Shown here: one piece after another, positions 23,854-34,582 of the stretch
How the letters are laid out: the number at the start of each line of letters is the position of its first letter
How positions within the stretch are numbered: the first letter of the stretch is position 1
Origin: Gimesia benthica
GTDB lineage: Bacteria; Planctomycetota; Planctomycetia; Planctomycetales; Planctomycetaceae
NCBI RefSeq assembly: GCF_009720525.1
Contig: NZ_CP043930.1
Coordinates: 4,682,501 to 4,746,500 of the forward strand
Direction of reading: 5' to 3'
DNA length: 64,000 bases
The notes under the pieces: model-generated
The model's database searches: none
Told to the model about the DNA's origin: nothing
What the model saw: the letters and a program-made list of their open reading frames with translations, nothing else
Made by a program: the position numbers and the translations under genes

Positions 23854-24615
23854 ATGTCAATGTTACTTGACGAAAGACGGGAAAGCATCCTAAAGATTGT
23901 CGAAAACAAGGGGTTTGTCTCCCTTGTGGATTTGATGGATTCTGTCGGTGCCTCGGAATCTACGATTCGGAGGGATTTGGAGTATCTTGACGGAATCGGT
24001 CAGATTCGTCGCACTCGTGGTGGCGCTGCTTACGTGGGAGAGTCATTAGCCACTTTTGAAGATCGGTCTTTTATGTCGTCCAGGCAAAAAAGGCTGGTAG
24101 CACAGGCTGTGGCAGATCTGATTGCTCCCGGAGAGGCTGTGCTGATGGATGGAGGCACAACCACTCTCGAAGTCGCTCGTCAACTGGCGGGCAAAGAACT
24201 ACAGGTCGTCACCAATTCACTGCCGATCGCCAATCTGCTGGTCAACCAGCCCAAGGTCGATCTGATGTTGATCGGAGGCTTCCTGTTTCCCAAAACCGGC
24301 GTCGCGTTGGGGAAGACTGCTGTGGAATCGCTGAAAAGCGTTCATGTGCGTCGCCTCATTATCAGCGTTGGCGGAATCACTGAAGATGGGCTGTACAACA
24401 GCAACATGTTACTGGTGGAAACGGAGCAGCAGATGTTTGCCGCTGCAGAAGAAGTGATCGTGGTGACTGACAGTACCAAATTCGGGCATTCGGCTCTGGC
24501 CTACCTCTGCCCGCTGGCGGACGTCGATCACATCGTCGTGGACGACGGGATCACGGAAGAGTGGCAGCAGGTACTCCGCGATGCCGGCATCAAACTCACG
24601 ATTGTCGAAACCTGA
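23854..24615 (+). CDS. DeoR-family transcriptional regulator of the microcompartment operon
   Basis: A 253-residue sugar-pathway repressor type. An N-terminal winged helix-turn-helix (about residues 6-60; [20 protein letters not shown] is the recognition region) is followed by a DeoR C-terminal effector domain. That domain has the nucleophile/phosphosugar loop [13 protein letters not shown] and the later [17 protein letters not shown] block. DeoR proteins usually sense a phosphorylated intermediate. It is the first gene, 50 bases before pduL, and probably co-transcribed, so autoregulation at the GATTGAAAG sites is plausible. The start ATG 23854 has an excellent AGGAGGAG. Fuculose- or rhamnulose-phosphate as effector would fit the pathway. 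Confidence 0.9.
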
Positions 24616-24665: not shown

Positions 24666-25376
24666 ATGACACAACTGAAAAATTCCATCTCTCGCTCGCA
24701 GGTAGAACAACTGGTTCGTCAGGCTTTATCTCAACAACTCCCGGGCACATCAGCTCCGGGACTGCAGACGGCCCCGAACCCCCTGGTTGTGAATATCTCA
24801 GCACGACACGTGCATCTCTCTCAGGAACACCTGGAAGTCCTGTTCGGTAAAGGTGCTGAACTCGAAGTCCAGAAAGACCTCTACCAGGATGGCTACTTCG
24901 CCGCCACTCAGACCGTGGCGATTGTCGGCCCCCGCCGCCGGATGATTCCCAACGTTCGCGTTCTGGGACCTTGCCGTGGCGATACTCAGGTCGAACTGGC
25001 CTACACCGATTCGATCTCTCTCGGACTGGATCTGCCAGTCCGCATCAGTGGCGACATCAAAGGCACACCCGGTTGTGTGCTGATGGGACCCCAGGGAGTC
25101 GTCGAACTCGATTTCGGCGTGATCCGGGCTGCCCGTCACGTCCACATGTCACCAGCTGACTGTGCTTACTACGGTTGTGCCAACGGCGACAGCCTGCACC
25201 TGCGGGTCGATTCCCCCGGCTGCACCACGGTCCTCGAAGATGTGGTCGTACGCGAAAACCCGGACGTCAAACTGGAAGTCCACATCGATACCGACGAAGG
25301 CAACGCCGTCGACCTCGATCATGCGACTTCGGTCAAACTCTTCGTCCCGGAATCCTGTAAATGCAAACACAGCTGA
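24666..25376 (+). CDS. pduL: PduL-type phosphotransacylase with N-terminal encapsulation peptide
   Basis: A 236-residue acyl-CoA:phosphate acyltransferase, expected to convert lactyl-CoA (or propionyl-CoA) to the acyl phosphate inside the organelle and release CoA. Residues 6-24 form an amphipathic helix ([19 protein letters not shown]) separated by a linker from the catalytic part, typical of a cargo-targeting peptide. Two homologous beta-barrel domains carry metal-binding His: [15 protein letters not shown] near residue 40 and [12 protein letters not shown] near residue 157. ATG 24666 is used. Acetate kinase, two genes further on, would use its product. Confidence 0.93.
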
Positions 25377-25503: not shown

Positions 25504-25803
25504 ATGGCGAAAGCAATGGAAGCCCTGGGAATGGTGGAAACAAAAGGGCTGATCAGCCTGATTGAAGCCGCCGATGCAATGCTCAAAGCAGCCAACGTAC
25601 AGATGATTGGCTGGGAAAAAGTAGGTAGCGGTCTGGTAACCGGTTTTGTTGTCGGTGATGTCGCTGCTGTCAAAGCTGCTGTCGACGCCGGTGCCGCTGC
25701 TGCCAGCAAAGTTGGCGAAGTTGTCAGCGTACAGGTCATTCCTCGTCCGCACGAAGAACTGGCTAGCGTACTGCCCAGCAAGACTGCCGCTGCTAAGAAA
25801 TAA
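25504..25803 (+). CDS. pvmD: BMC-H hexameric shell protein
   Basis: A 99-residue single BMC (Pfam 00936-type) domain forming hexameric shell tiles. It begins [27 protein letters not shown] and contains the characteristic [18 protein letters not shown] helix and the VIPRPHEEL motif. The C-terminus is a Lys/Ala tail. The start ATG 25504 has AAGGAGA just upstream, a strong site in keeping with abundant shell protein. A second, similar hexamer gene follows 136 bases later. The symbol follows, from memory, the order used for the Planctopirus limnophila locus. Confidence 0.93.
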
Positions 25804-25939: not shown

Positions 25940-26209
25940 ATGAGTTCTGAAGCAATTGGTCTGATTGAAACAAAAGGTCTGGTCGCTCAAATCGAAGCTT
26001 CCGACGCCATGCTGAAAGCTGCCAACGTGACTCTGGTTGACCAGATTCAGATTGGTGGTGCCTACATTACCACCGTGATCCAGGGTGATATCGGATCGGT
26101 TCGTGCTGCTGTTGACGCTGGTGCTGCTGCCGCTTCTCAAATCGGAGAACTGGTTGGTGCACACGTAATCGCACGCCCCTCCGAAAGCCTGATGTCACAC
26201 TTTATGTAA
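25940..26209 (+). CDS. pvmE: BMC-H hexameric shell protein, second copy
   Basis: An 89-residue BMC domain ([27 protein letters not shown], then [21 protein letters not shown] and HVIARPSE), close to the preceding shell protein but shorter at the C-terminus. ATG 25940 is chosen since the match to BMC begins there; the frame is open for 40 codons upstream, but that part has no similarity to a shell protein. Its pore-loop region (QIQIGGAYITT) differs from the first copy ([11 protein letters not shown]), so the two may form tiles with different pores. Confidence 0.93.
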   Translation: MSSEAIGLIETKGLVAQIEASDAMLKAANVTLVDQIQIGGAYITTVIQGDIGSVRAAVDAGAAAASQIGELVGAHVIARPSESLMSHFM

Positions 26210-26305: not shown

Positions 26306-27496
26306 ATGAAAGTACTAGTTGCCAATTTAGGTTCTACCAGTTTCAAATATCGCCTGTTTGATATGCCCGCAGAAGTGCAGCTCGCACGCGGGGGCATCGA
26401 TCGGATCGGCGGCGAACAGTCGCACTGCTTCGTTGAAATTGGTGAGCATCGGGAAGAGCACGAACAGAACGTGCCCGACCATGCAGCCGCCGTCAACCTG
26501 TGTCTGTCTCAGTTGACCAACTCCGAATGGGGTTGTCTCGAGTCAGCCGACGAAGTTGCCGGCATTGGTTTCAAAGCGGTCTTTGCCGGAAACATGAGTG
26601 GCGTACGCCTGGTAGAAGAAACCCTGCTGACCAAAATGGAGGCCCTGTCCGACATCGCGCCGGCTCACAATCCTCCGTATGCCCGGGCTATGCGACAACT
26701 GCGTCAGGCGTTCCCTGAAATCCCGCTGGTTGCCGCACTCGAAACCGCCTTCCATGAAACCATCGCGCCGGAAAATCGTACCTACGCCATCCCGTTCCAA
26801 TGGGACGAAGAGTACGAAGTCAAACGCTGGGGGTTCCATGGTGCCAGTCACCGGTATATCGGCTCACGTATGGCCGAACTCACCGGTAAAGACGATCTGA
26901 AGGTGATTTCCTGCCACCTGGGAGGCAGCAGCTCTCTCTGTGCCATGCACGGAGGTGTCTCTAAAGCCAACAGTCTGGGTATGAGCCCTCAGACAGGATT
27001 GCCCCACAATAACCGTGTGGGTGATTTTGATCCGTTTGCTCTGCCGGTTCTGCAGAAGGCCACCGGAAAATCTCTGGAGGAACTTCTGGAAGACCTGTCG
27101 AGTAAGGGTGGTCTTTTGGGAATGAGCGGATTGAGTGGCGACTGTCGCGATCTGGAAGAAGCGGCCGCCAACGGACACGAGCGGGCCCAACTGGCCCTGG
27201 GCGTGTTCCACTCAGCCATCCGGCATTACCTGGGAGGTTACATGACGGTTCTGGGCGGCGTGGATGCGATTGTTTTCACGGGTGGAATCGGTGAGAACAG
27301 TGTCAGCCTGCGAGAAAAGGTCTGCAGCAACCTGGAATGGGCGGGAATTCGACTGGATCCGGAACGCAATCAGAATGCGTCCGAGGAATCACAGATCCAG
27401 GCGGACGACAGCAACGTGCAGATCTGGGTCGTGCCTACCAATGAGGAGATTGTCGTAGCACGGCAGACAGTAGAAACCATCGAAGGGCGTGCGTAA
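26306..27496 (+). CDS. ackA: Acetate/propionate-type kinase of the microcompartment
   Basis: A 396-residue ASKHA-fold kinase that should make ATP from an acyl phosphate. The family blocks are visible: [20 protein letters not shown] at the N-terminus, [13 protein letters not shown] in the middle, [14 protein letters not shown] (phosphate loop) and FTGGIGENS near the C-terminus. Length is normal. Position after the shell genes suggests it converts PduL product (lactyl-phosphate or acetyl-phosphate) to the free acid. No encapsulation helix is evident, so it may act outside the shell. The ribosome site is weak. Confidence 0.92.
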
Positions 27497-27547: not shown

Positions 27548-27859
27548 ATGTTTGTAGGACGTATCACCGGAAGCGTCGTTTCGTCTCAGAAAGTCGATGC
27601 GATGGTCGGTCAGAAACTGTTGATTGTCGAACCGTTGCGCGTCAATGAAAAAGACCAGAGTGATCTGACTCCCACAGGACGGTCGTTTATCGTCGTCGAT
27701 ACCGTAGGGGCAGGGCAGGGTGAGGTCGTGCTGTGTGTGCAGGGGTCGTCAGCCCGCTTCACACCGGAAACCAAAAAACTGCCCATCGATGCAGCCATCA
27801 TCGGCATCGTCGATCAGGTTCACATTGGCAACCGGGAGATTTTTAACTCGAAGGACTGA
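27548..27859 (+). CDS. pvmH: BMC-P pentameric vertex protein
   Basis: A 103-residue EutN/CcmL-family protein (Pfam 03319-type) that caps shell vertices as pentamers. It has the FVGRITGSVVSS N-terminal strand, LLIVEPLRVN, and the VVDTVGAGQGEVVLCVQGSSAR core, then IDAAIIGIVDQV. CAGGAG precedes ATG 27548. It is the first of three vertex proteins in this locus; the other two are at 29942 and 30966. The symbol follows the P. limnophila order from memory. Confidence 0.93.
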   Translation: MFVGRITGSVVSSQKVDAMVGQKLLIVEPLRVNEKDQSDLTPTGRSFIVVDTVGAGQGEVVLCVQGSSARFTPETKKLPIDAAIIGIVDQVHIGNREIFNSKD

Positions 27860-27885: not shown

Positions 27886-28407
27886 ATGACCAGACAGTTA
27901 CCACAGGCAACGCCAGAGCAGAGACACCGGACGATGTTCATCATCTGGTTTGCCCTGATCATGGGTGTGGTAACCTTCGGAGTGGTCGTGGTCGGAATCC
28001 TGGGAAAGGACGAAGCACCCGGCGACGATCTGCCGCTCCTGACATATGTGGGACTGGGTGCTACAGCGGTCATGCTGGTATTACGCACCTTTGTGCCGGA
28101 TCTGGTAGGACGCAACATGTTCAACCAGGCCATGGAGAGAATTAAAACAGAGAATATTCAGGACGAAGACGAGGTTCTGGCATCCTACGATCAGATTTTC
28201 ATGACTCGGCTGATTGTGGGACTGGCCTTACTGGAAGGAGCGGCGATGCTCAATCTGGTGGCCTACATGACAGAGAGCCAGGTACTTTCGCTTGTGGCTG
28301 TCGGCATATTGCTGCTGGTCATGATTGCTTCAGTACCGACCAAATCAAAACTGGAAGCATGGATTCGCAACCAGATGGAAAACTATAACCTGGAAAACCA
28401 AAACTGA
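27886..28407 (+). CDS. Membrane protein inside the microcompartment operon
   Basis: A 173-residue protein with four likely membrane helices (about residues 17-40, 50-68, 105-125 and 132-150). A short charged region between helices 2 and 3 reads NQAMERIKTENIQDEDEVL, and the tail is amphipathic (SKLEAWIRNQMENYNLENQ). No transporter family recognised. It starts 26 bases after the vertex-protein gene and is followed 70 bases later by the aldehyde dehydrogenase, so it is very likely part of the operon. Microcompartment loci rarely hold such proteins; it may be a permease, a membrane anchor for the organelle or an unrelated regulator. Confidence 0.8.
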   Translation: MTRQLPQATPEQRHRTMFIIWFALIMGVVTFGVVVVGILGKDEAPGDDLPLLTYVGLGATAVMLVLRTFVPDLVGRNMFNQAMERIKTENIQDEDEVLASYDQIFMTRLIVGLALLEGAAMLNLVAYMTESQVLSLVAVGILLLVMIASVPTKSKLEAWIRNQMENYNLENQN

Positions 28408-28477: not shown

Positions 28478-29902
28478 ATGCAGGCGACAGAAGAAGCCAT
28501 TCGCAGTGTCGTTCAGGAAGTGTTATCGCAGCTCAATAACCGGGGTGGCTATGGTTCCGCACCCGCGGGCGGCGATGGCGACTGGGGCGTGTTCAACAGC
28601 GTCGACCAGGCGGTAGCCGCTGCCACCGCAGGTCAGCAGCAGTTGCTCAAGGCCACTCTGGAAGACCGGGCCAAGGCACTCGAAATCGTGCGGCAGATCT
28701 GTGATACCCAGGCGGAAGAACTGGGCCGCATGGAACTCGAAGAGACCAAAATCGGTCGCCTCGATCACAAAATCGAAAAACTGCATCTGATCAAAAGCAT
28801 TCCCGGCATGGAATTCCTCAAGACTGAAGCTGTCTCCGGGGACAACGGGATCAGCCTCACCGAATACGCCCCCTTCGGCGTCATCGGTGCCATCACTCCG
28901 GTAACACACTCCCTGCCGACTCTGGCCTGTAACTTCATCAACATGGTCGCCGCCGGCAACACGCTGGTCGTCAACCCGCACCCCAGCGGAGCGAAAATCG
29001 CCTGCGAAGGAGTGCGTCGCTTCAACCAGGCCATCTACCAGGCGACTGGCCTGCAGAACCTGGTGACCATCGTCGGCAACCCGACCCTGGAAACCGCAGA
29101 CGAAATCTTCAATCACCGCAGTATTCCGCTGCTCGTTGTGACCGGGGGACCGGGTGTAGCCCGTGCTGCTCTGGCCGCTAAGAAGCGGGCTATCGTCGCC
29201 GGACCGGGGAATCCTCCCGTAGTCGTCGATGAAACCGCCGATCTCGACAACGCTGCCAAATCGATCATTATCGGGGCGGCCTACGATAACAACCTGCTCT
29301 GCATCGGCGAAAAAGAAGTCTTCGCCGTCGAAAGTATCTTTGACCAGCTGATGTCAGCCATGGGACGTCATGGCGGATTCCAGCTGAACGCTCAGCAGGT
29401 CGCACAACTCACATCGCTGGCCTTCGCTCCTCCCAAAGAACCGGGCGGACACGCTGTACTCAACCGCGACATGATCGGCAAAGACGCCGCTGTGCTCGCC
29501 GGAATGATCGGTGTTAACGTGCCAGCAGGAACTCAGTTACTTTACGGCGAAACCGATACGAACAACCCCTTCGTGCCTGAAGAGCAGATGATGCCCTTCG
29601 TGCCTTTCGTTCGCTGTCGCAACGCCGATCACGGAATCGAGCTGGCCAAAGAATTCGAACACGGATTCCGGCACACCAGCATGATTCACTCACGCAACAT
29701 TGAAACCATTACCAAAATGGGTCGCGTCATGGACACCACTCTGTTTGTGCAGAATGGTCCCTGTGGAGCAGCCTTGGGCAACGGTGGTGAAGGCTATGGT
29801 TCCTTCAGTATCGCGACACCCACCGGGGAAGGGGTCACCAACCCGCTGACCTTCACCCGCTTCCGTCGTTCCACCACCGTCGGACATTTACGAGTTATCT
29901 AA
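28478..29902 (+). CDS. pduP: CoA-acylating aldehyde dehydrogenase of the microcompartment
   Basis: A 474-residue PduP/EutE-type enzyme that should oxidise lactaldehyde (or propionaldehyde) to the acyl-CoA with NAD. The N-terminal helix [19 protein letters not shown], followed by a Gly/Ala-rich linker, is a typical encapsulation peptide. The catalytic Cys is Cys275 in [14 protein letters not shown]; the NAD-site blocks [12 protein letters not shown] and [13 protein letters not shown] precede it. Start ATG 28478. Product acyl-CoA is the substrate of PduL encoded earlier in the operon. Confidence 0.93.
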
Positions 29903-29941: not shown

Positions 29942-30226
29942 ATGTTGACAGGCAGAGTCATCGGACGGGCAACCGCCACTGCAAAGCATCCCAGTCTGGC
30001 AGGCTGGCGACTGCTGCTCGTCCAGACACTGGATATTGATGGCAACGCTGATGGATTTCCTGAACTGGTCATCGATCAACTCGGGTGCGGCAAACACGAT
30101 CTGGTGCTGTTGACATCAGACGGGGCTGCCGTCCGGGACATGGTGGGGGTCGACAATACTCCCATCCGCTGGGCCACCATGGGTGTGCTCGATGAAGATC
30201 AGGTGTCTCCGGGGAAAAAGAAATAA
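29942..30226 (+). CDS. pvmK: BMC-P pentameric vertex protein
   Basis: A 94-residue EutN/CcmL-family protein: LTGRVIGRATATAKHPSLAGW start, then LLLVQTLD and a VIDQLGCGKHDLVLLTSDGAAVR core. It has a Lys-rich C-terminus. The start ATG 29942 lies after AGGATTGAAATCAT. It begins 39 bases after the aldehyde dehydrogenase and its end is four bases from the next gene, showing tight operon packing. Confidence 0.92.
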   Translation: MLTGRVIGRATATAKHPSLAGWRLLLVQTLDIDGNADGFPELVIDQLGCGKHDLVLLTSDGAAVRDMVGVDNTPIRWATMGVLDEDQVSPGKKK

Positions 30227-30230
30227 ACCA

Positions 30231-30919
30231 ATGCAGATTTCTGAAGAACTGGTCAATCAGGTCGTTGCCGATGTCTTGTCGACCCTCTCCCGTCAGGGAC
30301 AGGTCACACAGGCAGCAGGCAGCGGTATGACCCCGGTCAGGAACAGTTCCTCAGTCATCCTGTCAGAGAAAGTCATCACGGCCGACCTGCTCGCAGAGAA
30401 AGCCAAAGGACAGACCGTCATCGGCGTCACCGCAGGGGCCATTCTGACCCCTTCGGCTAAAGATTATCTGCGGGAATACAAAGTCGAGATCCAGCGTGCA
30501 ACAGCCGCTGCTTGCACAAAAGCGAAGCAGGGGGGACCTGGCGGGCGATTGTTCTTAATCGGGCTGGCGTGGTGGAACAGGCTCTGACGAATATCGAACA
30601 GCAGACCGGCGCAAGCTGGTCACAGGAACTGGCAGGTTCTCTGGACGAAGCGGTCCAGGGGGCGGTCAGCAGTTTATGTCGTGCCGATGCTACAGGCGTG
30701 GTCCTGTTTGTCTCGGCAGCAGAGAAAGCAGCCTGCCTGGCGAATCGGAATCAGAAAATCTGTGCCGCCGCCATCCAGGATGTGAATCACCTGCGAACGG
30801 TTGTGTCGCAAATGAGTCCAAACCTCGTTTGTATCAACCCGGACCAGAAATCGTTTATTGAATTGAGAAACCTGATGAAGGCCTTTGTCTCCGCCGGCAC
30901 TCCGCATCCGGAAGTCTAA
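30231..30919 (+). CDS. RpiB-like microcompartment protein with encapsulation helix, broken by a frameshift
   Basis: The frame from ATG 30231 begins with an amphipathic helix (QISEELVNQVVADVLSTLSR) and a short linker, like other cargo-targeting peptides. It continues through ITADLLAEKAKGQTVIGVTAGAI and YLREYKVEI, then becomes nonsense and stops at 30587. The downstream frame (about 30530-30919; EAGGTWRAIVLNRAGVVEQAL onwards) reads into VVLFVSAAEKAACLANRN and QKICAAAIQDVNHLR, resembling a degenerate RpiB/LacAB sugar-phosphate-isomerase half. One extra G in the G6 run at 30530-30535 joins both into about 229 residues. So it is a frameshifted or mis-sequenced cargo protein. In P. limnophila a protein of similar position is of unknown function. 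Confidence 0.75.
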
Positions 30920-30965: not shown

Positions 30966-31247
30966 ATGAAAATCGCAGAAGTCATCGGCAAAGTGACACT
31001 GTCACGCAAGCATCCGAGTCTGGACGGCGCGCGGTGGATTATCGGGATTCCCTTGAAGAGCGACGAACTGAACACAAACAAGAAAAAGAAAACGGAACCG
31101 TTTGTGATCTACGATGAGTTGGGTGCTTCACCTGGCAGCCTGATTGCTGTCAGTGAAGGAGCGGAAGCAGCAGCTCCCTTTAATCCTGATACCAAACCGA
31201 TCGACGCCTATGTGTCGGCCATCCTGGATCAGGTTGAAGTTTACTAA
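30966..31247 (+). CDS. pvmM: BMC-P pentameric vertex protein, third copy
   Basis: A 93-residue EutN/CcmL-family protein starting at ATG 30966: KIAEVIGKVTLSRKHPSLDG, then RWIIGIPL, FVIYDELGASPGSLIAVSEGAEAA and IDAYVSAILDQVEV. A 15-residue Lys-rich loop (LNTNKKKKTEP) between strands is longer than in the other two vertex proteins. It lies between the RpiB-like gene and the aldolase. Three distinct vertex proteins are usual in planctomycete microcompartments. Confidence 0.92.
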   Translation: MKIAEVIGKVTLSRKHPSLDGARWIIGIPLKSDELNTNKKKKTEPFVIYDELGASPGSLIAVSEGAEAAAPFNPDTKPIDAYVSAILDQVEVY

Positions 31248-31306: not shown

Positions 31307-32197
31307 ATGTCGAGTCAATGGAACAGTGGAATTCACGACCGGAAACTGAAAGAAGAGATCTGCGAAATCGGACGTCGCGTCTACAACAAAGGCTTCGCGG
31401 CTGCCAACGACGGTAACATCTCGATTCGCGTCGGCGAAAACGAAGTACTCTGCTCACCCACGATGATCTGCAAAGGTTTCATGAATCCCGAAGACATCTG
31501 TGCGGTTGACCTGGATGGCAACCAGATCGCCGGTACCCGCAAGCGTACCAGCGAAATCCTGTTGCACCTTTCGATCATGAAAGAACGTCCCGACGTCAAA
31601 GCCGTCGTGCACTGTCACCCGCCTCACGCGACTGCCTTCGCTGTTGCCCGCGAGCCGATCCCACAGTGTGTGCTGCCCGAAGTCGAAGTCTTCATGGGCG
31701 AAGTACCTATGGCTCCTTACGAAACACCGGGCGGACAGAAATTTGCCGACACCGTACTGCCTTTCCTCAAAGGAGGCACCAACACGATCATCCTGACCGG
31801 CCATGGTACCGTCAGCTTCGGTAAGTCTCTGGAAGACGCTTACTGGAAAACCGAAATCCTGGATGCGTACTGTAAAATTCTGCTGCTCTCCAAGCAGCTC
31901 GGACGCATCAACTACTTTACGGAAAACGAAACCCGCGAACTGCTCGACCTGAAGCAGAAGCTCGGTTTCGATGATCCCCGTTTCCACGTTGAAGACTGTG
32001 ATCTCTGTGGCAACAGCGCCTTCCGGGAAGGTTATACCGAAGGTCTACCGCAGCAGAAAGCGTTTGAGCCAGCTCCCAGTTACCCGGGATACCTGCAGAA
32101 ACCATCGACCCAGCCCGCAGCAGCACCTGCCGGCGGCAACTCAGATCAGCTGATCAAAGCGATCACCGATCAGGTCATGTCAGCCCTGGGACAGTAA
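31307..32197 (+). CDS. pvmN: Class II aldolase (fuculose-/rhamnulose-phosphate type) with C-terminal encapsulation peptide
   Basis: A 296-residue zinc aldolase that should split L-fuculose-1-phosphate or L-rhamnulose-1-phosphate into DHAP and L-lactaldehyde. The family blocks are GFAAANDGNISIRVG, the metal-ligand VVHCHPPHATAFA and GHGTVSFG. The domain ends near residue 225, then comes a Pro/Ala/Gly-rich linker and the terminal helix DQLIKAITDQVMSALGQ, a clear cargo-targeting peptide. ATG 31307 (GGGAG upstream) is used in place of the in-frame TTG 31292. In planctomycetes this aldolase is the signature enzyme of the locus. Confidence 0.93.
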   Translation: MSSQWNSGIHDRKLKEEICEIGRRVYNKGFAAANDGNISIRVGENEVLCSPTMICKGFMNPEDICAVDLDGNQIAGTRKRTSEILLHLSIMKERPDVKAVVHCHPPHATAFAVAREPIPQCVLPEVEVFMGEVPMAPYETPGGQKFADTVLPFLKGGTNTIILTGHGTVSFGKSLEDAYWKTEILDAYCKILLLSKQLGRINYFTENETRELLDLKQKLGFDDPRFHVEDCDLCGNSAFREGYTEGLPQQKAFEPAPSYPGYLQKPSTQPAAAPAGGNSDQLIKAITDQVMSALGQ

Positions 32198-32287: not shown

Positions 32288-33214
32288 ATGAATGTCAGTA
32301 TTATCGGTGGTGGGGGACTCGTCGGTTCCTGTGCTGCCTTTGCATTACAGGCCGGAGGCATTGTCCGGGAAATCGCTCTGGTAGACGTCAATCAGGAACT
32401 GGTCGAAGGCCAGGCCCTGGACCTGCTGCACGGCAGCTCTCTGACCGCAGATCAGAAGATTTATGCGGGGGGCACCGAACTGGTGAAAGACAGCGATGTG
32501 ATCGTCATCACCGCCGGTCTGCGTCGTAAGCCCGATGAAAGCCGCCTGGATCTGATCAACCGCAACGTTGAACTCTTCAAAAACATTCTGGCTGACGTCA
32601 AACGCGTCGGTACCAAACCCGGGGCGATTGTCTTCGTCGTTTCCAACCCGGTCGACGTGCTGACCTACCTGGCCATGAAAGAACTCGGATTGCCGCCTCA
32701 ACAGGTCATCGGTCTGGGGACCGTTCTCGATACCACCCGGCTTCGCAGCATGCTGGCAGCCCGTCTGGATGTCCCTCCGACACAGGTTTCCACCCTGATT
32801 CTCGGCGAGCACGGTGACAGCATGGTTCCCGTCTGGTCAGCTGCTCAGGTCGGCGGACTCCCTCTGGATAAGTTCCCAGGTGTGAATGCTAGTCTGATTG
32901 CCGAAGTCGAAAAGAAAACTCGTGGCAGCGGAGCTGAAGTCATCAAGAAAAAGGGCGGAGCTGGTTTCGCTGTCGGCGTGAGTATCGCCGATGTCGTGCA
33001 CTGTATTGCCCTCGATCAGCGTCGCATTCTGCCGGTTTCATCTCTGCAGGATGGTGCCTTCGGTCTGCGGGATGTCTGTATTTCGGTTCCGACCGTCATG
33101 GGACGCACCGGCGTCATGCAGCACCTGGAAATCGAACTCTGGCCCAAAGAACAGCTGGCTCTGACTCAGTCCGGCCGGGTTCTGCGGGAAACCGTCGACA
33201 AAGTCCTCGGCTGA
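32288..33214 (+). CDS. NAD-dependent lactate/malate-type dehydrogenase of the microcompartment
   Basis: A 308-residue LDH/MDH-family enzyme. The N-terminal Rossmann motif is IIGGGGLVGSCAAFAL. The substrate loop AGLRRKPDESRLDL is closer to malate than lactate dehydrogenases, and the catalytic His lies in GEHGDSMVPVW. ATG 32288 is used; TTG 32282 is in frame. In the proposed pathway it recycles NADH by reducing an aldehyde or oxoacid, for example lactaldehyde to propanediol or pyruvate to lactate; the exact substrate is not shown by sequence. No clear encapsulation helix is visible. A LacI-type palindrome lies just upstream. Confidence 0.9.
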   Translation: MNVSIIGGGGLVGSCAAFALQAGGIVREIALVDVNQELVEGQALDLLHGSSLTADQKIYAGGTELVKDSDVIVITAGLRRKPDESRLDLINRNVELFKNILADVKRVGTKPGAIVFVVSNPVDVLTYLAMKELGLPPQQVIGLGTVLDTTRLRSMLAARLDVPPTQVSTLILGEHGDSMVPVWSAAQVGGLPLDKFPGVNASLIAEVEKKTRGSGAEVIKKKGGAGFAVGVSIADVVHCIALDQRRILPVSSLQDGAFGLRDVCISVPTVMGRTGVMQHLEIELWPKEQLALTQSGRVLRETVDKVLG

Positions 33215-33287: not shown

Positions 33288-34505
33288 ATGGAAAAATCTC
33301 TCGACAGGAAGCTTCAGTCAATTCACGCTGACCCCAGCGGCTCGAAAGAGTTTATCATTGCTGATGCCAAAGACGCCGACATGGCCTTCGGCATCGGTGC
33401 CCCTGGACTCTCTCCGGAACGGCACGACCAGGAACTCAAATACAAAACGCTGGCAGAATACCGTCAGCAGATTCGCGAAGTCATCAAGCAGGAAGTGGTC
33501 GACATCGTCCTGATGTCTGCCAGCACCAGCGAAAAACTGACGATCGACGAGCGTCTGTTCGACAACTCACCGATCACACCCGCCGCCCGGGCGAATGACA
33601 CGACCGACGTGCACGTTCCCCGCGGAGGTAAACTGCATCTGCCGCCGGCCAAGCCATTCCGGTCGGCCAGCCTGGATCACATCCAGTGTGGACATCTCGA
33701 TTGTAAGCCTGAAGAACGCGCCTACGGTGCTGACTTGGGTCTTTACTCAGTAACCTTTAATAACAATCTCGAAGAAGACCTCGCGACCCTTGAACGCTAC
33801 AAGGAATTTCGCGAAGAAGCCGAACGCAAGAAGTTCCGCCACTTCCTGGAGATTTTCGATCCGAACATCAGTAACGCGGTCGCCGCAGATCTGGCCCCCG
33901 GTTTCATCAACGACCTGATCGCCCGGACTCTGGCTGGCGTCGCTTCGCCGGGACGCCCCGTCTTTCTGAAGATGGTCTACCACGGTCCGCGGGCCATGGA
34001 AGAACTGGTTGCCTATGATCCGCACCTCGTTGTCGGTATTCTCGGCGGTTCAGCAGGGACCACGCTTGATGCCTTCCAGCTGATCTACGATGCCCGGAAA
34101 TACGGAGCCCGTGTCGCCCTCTTTGGTCGCAAGATCAACCAGGCCGAACATCAGCTCGCCTTCATTCAGTTTCTGCGTTACCTGGTCGAAGACAAAATCC
34201 AACCCGCAGATGCCGTCAAAGCCTATCACGGCGTTCTGCAGGAACTGGGCATTAAACCGCACCGCGATCTCGAAACCGATCTGACTTACCAGACCGCCGT
34301 GATGAGCTATGGCGGTGAAGACGGCAAAACCTTCAGCTTTCCGGAGAAGAAAGCAGGTGGCAAGCCAGCGACCCCATCCGCAGAGAAACCAGCGGCTACA
34401 CCCGCAGCAGGGAAGACTCCGGAAGCTCCGAATTTCGCAGCCATGAGTTCCGCAGAAAAGCTGGCCTATCATCAGGCACGCCTGAACCGCATGTTCGGTA
34501 ACTAA
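33288..34505 (+). CDS. Unknown 405-residue protein with possible C-terminal targeting helix
   Basis: ATG 33288 is preferred over the overlapping GTG 33285. The protein has a TIM-barrel-like middle (about residues 130-340; RHFLEIFDPNIS, PVFLKMVYHGPRAMEEL, VVGILGGSAGTTLDAFQLIY, GARVALFGRKINQAEHQ). It may belong to an aldolase-like fold, but no family was recognised with confidence. About residues 350-385 are a Pro/Ala/Lys-rich linker, and the last 18 residues (SAEKLAYHQARLNRMFG) form an amphipathic helix, which is the usual layout of an encapsulated cargo. It ends the operon, 30 bases before a strong terminator. A role with fucose/rhamnose intermediates is inferred only from position. Confidence 0.8.
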   Translation: MEKSLDRKLQSIHADPSGSKEFIIADAKDADMAFGIGAPGLSPERHDQELKYKTLAEYRQQIREVIKQEVVDIVLMSASTSEKLTIDERLFDNSPITPAARANDTTDVHVPRGGKLHLPPAKPFRSASLDHIQCGHLDCKPEERAYGADLGLYSVTFNNNLEEDLATLERYKEFREEAERKKFRHFLEIFDPNISNAVAADLAPGFINDLIARTLAGVASPGRPVFLKMVYHGPRAMEELVAYDPHLVVGILGGSAGTTLDAFQLIYDARKYGARVALFGRKINQAEHQLAFIQFLRYLVEDKIQPADAVKAYHGVLQELGIKPHRDLETDLTYQTAVMSYGGEDGKTFSFPEKKAGGKPATPSAEKPAATPAAGKTPEAPNFAAMSSAEKLAYHQARLNRMFGN

Positions 34506-34534: not shown

Positions 34535-34582
34535 AGCAGGCGGCTTAGAATACACGCAGGTATTCAGCCGCCTGCTTTTTTA
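34535..34582 (+). terminator. Rho-independent terminator of the microcompartment operon
   Basis: AGCAGGCGGC (34535-34544) pairs with GCCGCCTGCT (34567-34576), and GAATAC (34548-34553) with GTATTC (34560-34565) extends the hairpin. TTTTTT follows. It lies 30 bases after the last operon gene and just before the next gene. Confidence 0.9.

What the first reader, a model, noticed from the sequence alone, without database searches (positions are those of the whole stretch)
33288..34505. Unrecognised barrel-like protein with a probable C-terminal encapsulation helix
After a 35-residue Pro/Ala/Lys linker the protein ends in an amphipathic helix, the usual arrangement for microcompartment cargo. The middle looks like a TIM barrel but matches no family I can name. 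It is the last gene of the operon and could supply an unknown enzymatic step.
Basis: inference. Interest (0 to 1): 0.55.

Follow-up and report, generated by a model that had tools for sequence, protein, structure and literature searches.

The report
Tailed aldolase in a sugar-degrading organelle
The last gene of a planctomycete's fucose/rhamnose protein organelle appears to encode a sugar-splitting enzyme of an unnamed aldolase family, whose tail was probably added when the enzyme moved into the organelle.

Summary
The gene is real: window 33288-34505, 405 aa, single copy, last gene of a PVM-type microcompartment (BMC) operon in a Gimesia-like genome. No Pfam family matches, but the fold is that of Schiff-base (class I) aldolases: ADH synthase Z 22.5, LsrF 21.9, archaeal FBP aldolase 21.2. 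K228 lies on β6 and is invariant in 102 of 102 relatives. All 55 distinct copies inside BMC operons carry a tail. In two phylum samples all 53 genomes with a tailed copy encode BMC-P shell protein. Tailless relatives are basal in the tree; in Verrucomicrobiota a ketohexokinase lies in 6 of 19 tailless stretches (about 0.09 expected). Tailed proteins fall in one clade with a few later losses. Best reading: a class I ketose-1-phosphate aldolase (products DHAP plus an aldehyde), once cytosolic and kinase-linked, recruited as a second aldolase into the organelle by gaining an unusual encapsulation tail. Activity, exact sugar and targeting are untested.

The parts
33288..34505 (+). gene X: tailed class I aldolase-like protein, 405 aa, stop included
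33354..34244 (+). (β/α)8 barrel, residues 23 to about 319
   Evidence: DSSP on the AlphaFold model
33849..33851 (+). E188, end of β5, invariant in 102 of 102 homologues
33969..33971 (+). K228 on β6, candidate Schiff-base lysine, invariant in 102 of 102
   Evidence: (weak)
34044..34049 (+). G253-G254 after β7, likely phosphate-binding loop (role inferred)
34125..34130 (+). G280-R281 after β8, likely phosphate-binding loop (role inferred)
34299..34424 (+). disordered Pro/Ala/Lys linker, residues 338-379
34425..34502 (+). conserved tail with C-terminal helix (388-403), predicted encapsulation tail
34556..34575 (+). terminator-like stem-loop followed by a T run (weak)
23854..24615 (+). DeoR-family regulator
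24666..25376 (+). PduL-type phosphotransacylase (PF06130)
25504..25803 (+). BMC-H shell protein
25940..26209 (+). BMC-H shell protein
26306..27496 (+). acetate-kinase family protein
27548..27859 (+). BMC-P shell protein
28478..29902 (+). aldehyde dehydrogenase (PF00171) with an encapsulation-peptide-like N-terminal helix (by eye)
   Evidence: sequence
29942..30226 (+). BMC-P shell protein
30966..31247 (+). BMC-P shell protein
31307..32197 (+). class II aldolase (PF00596), PVM signature enzyme, with an encapsulation-peptide-like C-terminal helix (by eye)
   Evidence: sequence
32288..33214 (+). lactate/malate dehydrogenase family protein

Best explanation
X is a class I (Schiff-base, metal-independent) ketose-1-phosphate aldolase that works inside the PVM microcompartment beside the unrelated class II aldolase. 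K228 forms an imine with the ketose C2. The C3-C4 bond is cut, releasing an aldehyde (lactaldehyde from L-fuculose- or L-rhamnulose-1-phosphate; glyceraldehyde or glycolaldehyde from other ketose-1-phosphates) and leaving DHAP held at the β7/β8 loops. The aldehyde goes to the encapsulated aldehyde dehydrogenase, then PduL and the acid kinase. The C-terminal helix on its linker brings the enzyme into the shell. By descent it is a cytosolic aldolase linked to sugar kinases (ketohexokinase in Verrucomicrobiota) that gained the tail once, at the base of the BMC-associated clade. Shown by computation: fold, invariant residues, operon, tail/BMC association, kinase neighbours of relatives. Inferred: chemistry, substrate, targeting, direction of the tail change.
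For: Fold: the best-ranked solved structures are class I aldolases. K228 lies in β6 (227-229); K228, E188, GG253-254 and GR280-281 are invariant in 102 of 102 and in 107 of 107 of an overlapping wider set. Operon: PVM set. Co-occurrence: in 393 Planctomycetota genomes X (E<1e-90) is in 62, BMC-P in 156, both in 60, Fisher 1.8e-25. In 288 Verrucomicrobiota genomes X is in 17, BMC-P in 48, both in 14, p 1e-9. Tail (at least 40 residues past residue 335): 55 of 55 distinct complete copies in BMC operons (54; L064 added by hand from positions). In the two phylum samples 53 genomes have a tailed copy, all with BMC-P; 25 have only tailless copies, 20 of them with BMC-P; one copy was cut off. Both X-bearing planctomycetes without BMC-P (G059, G293) have tailless copies. 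Tree: a 77-row clade (SH-aLRT 96) holds all tailed rows and 5 tailless ones; 4 tail changes at least. Kinase: ketohexokinase in 6 of 19 Verrucomicrobiota X stretches against about 0.085 expected, and next to the tailed copies of L031 and L029; it is in 15 of 17 X-bearing and 10 of 33 X-less Verrucomicrobiota, p 2e-4. A PfkB kinase directly follows X in 3 of 8 alphaproteobacterial stretches.
Against: No ketohexokinase passes the cut-off in 80 BMC-bearing planctomycetes, so the kinase link is not seen in the window's own lineage. L-rhamnose isomerase PF06134 does not track X: 9 of 50 X+ against 5 of 30 X-. The profile alignment that pairs K228 with LsrF K203 is weak (probability 0.6%, E 0.095), and an ungapped HMMER alignment puts it one residue off. 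By sequence the best PDB hits were two AI-designed TIM barrels (E 2e-6), LsrF only at E 0.36. Of 156 BMC-P genomes in the phylum 96 lack X, so X is not essential to such organelles. A class II aldolase is already in the operon. The tail/operon association is confounded by descent: the independent-pairs test has 3 pairs and cannot reach significance. One tailless copy (L150) lies about 9 kb from shell genes; counted as in-locus it would make 55 of 56.
Confidence: 0.66

Rival explanations
1. X is a fructose-bisphosphate-type class I aldolase acting in the gluconeogenic direction, condensing the DHAP made by the PVM aldolase with glyceraldehyde-3-phosphate; the tail keeps it near the shell.
For: Archaeal FBP aldolase and LacD are close structural matches; DHAP is a product of the fucose pathway (PMC8857213, passages).
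Against: Linkage of relatives to ketohexokinase points to ketose-1-phosphates, not bisphosphates; a strong X match is in only 62 of 393 Planctomycetota genomes, unlike a central glycolytic enzyme.
Confidence: 0.13
2. X is an LsrF- or ADH-synthase-like transferase of the same fold that makes or breaks another C-C bond, not a DHAP-releasing aldolase.
For: Best weak sequence hits are LsrF and ADH synthase; best structural match is ADH synthase.
Against: Identified neighbours of relatives include sugar kinases and a xylose isomerase; AI-2 or aromatic-pathway genes were not searched for as such.
Confidence: 0.12
3. X is a cytosolic enzyme merely co-regulated with the BMC, and the tail serves oligomerisation or another protein contact.
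For: The tail is unlike the hydrophobic terminal helices of the same operon and its amphipathicity does not beat shuffles; 33 distinct tailed copies lie outside BMC operons (L064 moved).
Against: All 53 genomes with a tailed copy in the two phylum samples have BMC-P; tailless forms of the same barrel exist, so the tail is not needed for the barrel.
Confidence: 0.15
4. X is a catalytically dead, scaffolding barrel.
For: None found in the calls made.
Against: Invariant K228, E188 and β7/β8 loop residues and barrel dN/dS of 0.024.
Confidence: 0.03

Closest known systems
DhnA/LsrF/ADH-synthase class I aldolases (2QJI, 4P2V, 1OJX)
   Same: (β/α)8 barrel, lysine on β6, conserved loops after β7 and β8; Z 21.2-22.5 over 236-254 residues
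   Different: 14-17% identity, far below NCBIfam cut-offs, no Pfam match, extra linker and tail
Sulfofructose-type phosphate aldolases (YihT 7AG7; 8TNF)
   Same: same fold, Z 20.6 and 20.8; ketose-1-phosphate substrates by name
   Different: 13-14% identity; sulfosugar genes were not looked for near X
PVM class II aldolase (PF00596), window 31307-32197
   Same: proposed reaction and location; C-terminal tail
   Different: unrelated family and a different tail sequence
BMC encapsulation peptides (aldDH N-terminus, class II aldolase C-terminus of this operon)
   Same: short terminal helix on a linker; similar hydrophobic moment (0.38-0.45; the PduL N-terminus as cut scored 0.19)
   Different: tail here is net basic with an aromatic A-Y-x-x-x-R-L core and a conserved PDF..M lead-in

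Membership tests
class I Schiff-base aldolase superfamily (DhnA/LsrF/LacD) | (β/α)8 barrel of this type | tested here: met
class I Schiff-base aldolase superfamily (DhnA/LsrF/LacD) | invariant lysine on β6 | tested here: met
   K228: and 102 of 102
class I Schiff-base aldolase superfamily (DhnA/LsrF/LacD) | that lysine equivalent to LsrF K203 by alignment (K203 as the catalytic lysine is recalled) | tested here: inconclusive
   pairs them at E 0.095; one search is one residue off
class I Schiff-base aldolase superfamily (DhnA/LsrF/LacD) | imine-dependent aldol cleavage | not testable with these tools
   needs an enzyme assay
LsrF or ADH synthase (NCBIfam models) | score over curated cut-off | tested here: not met
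   24.3 of 297 and 22.2 of 241 bits
Pfam DeoC/LacD aldolase family | Pfam match | tested here: not met
   0 families for X at E up to 10; no aldolase model among the 10 families listed for 36 members
PF00596 class II aldolase | Pfam match | tested here: not met
encapsulated BMC cargo | gene in a BMC operon | tested here: met
encapsulated BMC cargo | terminal helix on a flexible linker | tested here: met
encapsulated BMC cargo | helix amphipathic beyond chance | tested here: inconclusive
   p about 0.09 for X; 7 of 91 family tails below 0.05
encapsulated BMC cargo | tail goes with shell genes | tested here: met
   confounded by descent
encapsulated BMC cargo | tail directs import | not testable with these tools
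   needs a reporter fusion
ketose-1-phosphate aldolase | genomic link of the family to a ketose kinase | tested here: met
   in Verrucomicrobiota and a PfkB kinase of unknown specificity in 3 alphaproteobacterial stretches; not seen in planctomycetes
ketose-1-phosphate aldolase | activity | not testable with these tools
   needs an enzyme assay

The most novel reading that the evidence does not exclude
The PVM organelle holds two evolutionarily unrelated aldolases (class II metal-dependent and class I Schiff-base), so that it splits a range of ketose-1-phosphates beyond fuculose- and rhamnulose-1-phosphate. The class I enzyme was captured from a ketohexokinase pathway by one tail gain, with an encapsulation tail of a type distinct from the hydrophobic peptides of its neighbours.
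Probability: 0.35. Interest if true: 0.66.

Novelty: new variant of a known kind. Interest (0 to 1): 0.52.

Why it matters
It names a likely function for a gene that no Pfam family covers, found in 62 of 393 planctomycete and 17 of 288 verrucomicrobial genomes sampled. It gives a natural series (tailless, tailed in the organelle operon, tail lost again) for how an enzyme becomes organelle cargo. It also predicts that part of the PVM microcompartments hold a second, metal-independent aldolase, which can be tested with one purified protein.

Tried and rejected
X as a replacement for the class II aldolase: rejected, since every locus in which the tblastn runs found shell genes near X also showed the class II gene. 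Link to L-rhamnose isomerase PF06134: no association; other isomerase families were not tried. Ketohexokinase in planctomycetes: none over cut-off in 80 genomes, 5 weak partial matches. Stop-codon read-through into a tail in tailless copies: by eye, no tail motif within about 300 nt after the stop in any of three frames of L044, L098-L102 and L104-L107. L024, which looked odd, has the tail in another frame beside a run of N. Tail motif in other proteins: with a tail profile on six frames of the window and loci up to L107, 93 hits are X and 17 are not, the best of the latter at E 0.047; in the window only X. Recurrent neighbours of copies outside BMC operons: none seen in more than four loci, those four being close relatives. 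PDB by sequence: two AI-designed TIM barrels (E 2e-6) and LsrF (E 0.36) for X; the profile's best hit was an unrelated protein at E 0.22. In one search the 50 rows shown are filled by aldolase-type barrels; families not listed are not excluded.

Criteria and dropped rows. Strong X means E<1e-90; one search lists 73 of 393 genomes and 42 of 288 at E<=0.001, the remainder being weak partial matches. One of the 156 BMC-P genomes is below the family cut-off. Fragments L020, L021, L041, L042, L078, then L024, were dropped, and identical proteins L056, L063, L066 counted once. 'Tailed' means at least 40 residues past residue 335; L091, L103, L073 and L030 are tailed by this rule but match the tail profile weakly (E 0.0013 to 5e-7). 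L064 and the G-handle copies with short flanks were assigned to the operon group by hand from BMC-P positions on the same contig. Where shell genes lie in the fetched stretch the nearest is at most 4.0 kb from X, against about 9 kb for the tailless L150 on the opposite strand, which I count as outside. Trees left out further near-identical rows (90 rows, 107); their topologies differ in part (minimum 3 and 4 tail changes).

Literature. The founding PVM paper (Erbilgin 2014) is not held; what I say of it comes from papers that cite it. Searches listed no paper that I could recognise, from titles and abstract starts, as describing a class I aldolase in PVM organelles; most hits were not opened. 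I saw passages of PMC8217296, PMC12078418, PMC4207490, PMC8857213 and PMC4918971. Supplements, which list locus contents, could not be read, so X may be shown there as a hypothetical protein.

Full report
What is there. The finding's frame is a real gene of 405 codons, last in an operon whose members were matched to Pfam: DeoR regulator, PduL, two BMC-H, acetate-kinase family, three BMC-P, aldehyde dehydrogenase, class II aldolase PF00596 and LDH-family dehydrogenase; two further genes of the operon have no Pfam match or are split (see noticed items). That is the PVM set of published catalogues, a microcompartment for L-fucose and L-rhamnose with the class II aldolase as signature enzyme (passages of PMC4207490 and PMC8217296). 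The genome is 8.03 Mb with one copy of X; the nearest relatives with a genus name are Gimesia MAGs.

Fold. An AlphaFold model on an alignment of 36 sequences (mean pLDDT 77.5, pTM 0.74) has eight strands at 23-28, 73-76, 97-101, 150-156, 184-190, 227-229, 249-252 and 276-279, a disordered linker at 338-379 and a helix at 388-403. The best-ranked solved structures are Schiff-base aldolases: ADH synthase Z 22.5 (rmsd 3.1 over 254), LsrF 21.9, archaeal FBP aldolase 21.2, LacD 20.9, sulfohexulose-1-phosphate aldolase 20.8, YihT 20.6; the larger FBP aldolases follow at 18.5-19.6. Sequence alone reaches them weakly (E 1.6e-5 to LsrF, far below its cut-off; no Pfam family; LsrF at E 0.36, behind two AI-designed barrels). 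K228 sits in β6, where this superfamily keeps its imine lysine (family knowledge), and is invariant in 102 of 102 complete relatives together with E188, G253, G254, G280 and R281. The residue equivalence to LsrF K203 is supported only weakly by sequence.

The tail. The linker is not conserved between lineages, whereas the tail largely is; in nine Gimesia-like copies dN/dS is 0.164 for the linker and 0.078 for the tail. The tail is net basic and aromatic, unlike the hydrophobic helices on the aldehyde dehydrogenase, the class II aldolase and the 30.2-kb protein of the same operon, though its moment is similar to theirs; none of this proves amphipathicity beyond chance. Among distinct complete copies, 55 of 55 in BMC operons have the tail; of 43 outside, 33 have it and 10 do not (with L064 moved to the operon group). 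Nineteen further Verrucomicrobiota copies, outside BMC operons, are all tailless; one of them, L150, lies about 9 kb from shell genes.

Who carries it. In 393 Planctomycetota genomes X is in 62 and BMC-P in 156, with 60 in common; 96 BMC-P genomes lack X. In 288 Verrucomicrobiota genomes the numbers are 17, 48 and 14. Over both samples the 53 genomes with a tailed copy (52 and 1) all have BMC-P; of 25 with only tailless copies (9 and 16) 20 do; one copy runs off its contig. So X is an accessory of these organelles: it rarely occurs without BMC genes in these two phyla, but many BMC-bearing genomes lack it.

Where it came from. In a tree of 107 barrels without their tails, alphaproteobacterial copies and several tailless PVC copies are basal, then a tailless Verrucomicrobiota group, then one clade of 77 (SH-aLRT 96) with all tailed copies and 5 tailless ones; tail state changes at least 4 times. 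The simplest history is one gain at the base of that clade and a few later losses, all in copies outside BMC operons. The root is a midpoint, so direction is inferred. An earlier tree of 90 rows differs in part (minimum 3 changes), and its independent-pairs test had 3 pairs and could not reach significance.

Function. Relatives sit beside sugar kinases. Ketohexokinase lies on the same strand 0.01-2.1 kb downstream of X in 6 of 19 Verrucomicrobiota stretches, against about 0.085 expected, and upstream of the tailed copies of L031 (adjacent) and L029 (one gene between). It is in 15 of 17 X-bearing and 10 of 33 X-less genomes. In the family of Celeribacter (Rhodobacteraceae, recalled) strong X matches occur in 8 of 149 genomes, one carrying two copies. 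Of eight stretches fetched there, a PfkB kinase directly follows X in three, one of them next to xylA and xylB over their NCBIfam cut-offs and a xylF-like gene just under its own (L128); the Celeribacter locus itself has an FGGY kinase, and two stretches hold a relative of it. A kinase that phosphorylates a ketose at C1, then an aldolase, is the route ketose to ketose-1-phosphate to DHAP plus aldehyde (engineered for xylulose with rat ketohexokinase, PMC4918971 passages). In the PVM organelle the known ketose-1-phosphates are those of fucose and rhamnose, so the likeliest product is lactaldehyde; other sugars are open. No ketohexokinase was found in 80 planctomycetes, and RhaA gave no signal, so the exact substrate stays undecided.

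Verdict. It is an unnamed branch of class I aldolases serving, on the best reading, as a second aldolase of a known organelle. Fold and association are well supported; substrate, activity and targeting are inferred.

Noticed in passing
window 30228-30919: A BMC-operon protein with an encapsulation-peptide-like N-terminal helix is split between two frames in the window, but is one continuous frame in the close relatives L132-L135 and in L002-L005 and L042. It could be a sequencing artefact or a real frameshift; the L003 copy has no Pfam family.
   Followed up: partly
L128 8849-17095: An alphaproteobacterial xylose locus with xylF-like, xylB, xylA, a tailless X and a PfkB kinase: possibly a natural xylulose-1-phosphate route.
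   Followed up: partly
genome G770 (L142, L147, L148, L149): One Verrucomicrobiota genome has four X copies, all tailless, with no shell gene found in the four fetched stretches.
   Followed up: partly
window 27886-28407: A small protein with hydrophobic stretches sits inside the BMC operon; no Pfam match, and tblastn found it in 6 of the 45 loci (L002-L005, L012, L042).
   Followed up: no
L139, L141, L143, L147: A DeoR-like regulator gene lies directly upstream of tailless X (22-28% to the window's DeoR).
   Followed up: no
Planctomycetota genomes with BMC-P but no strong X (96 of 156): Many BMC-bearing genomes lack X; what replaces it, if anything, and which BMC types they hold were not sought.
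   Followed up: no
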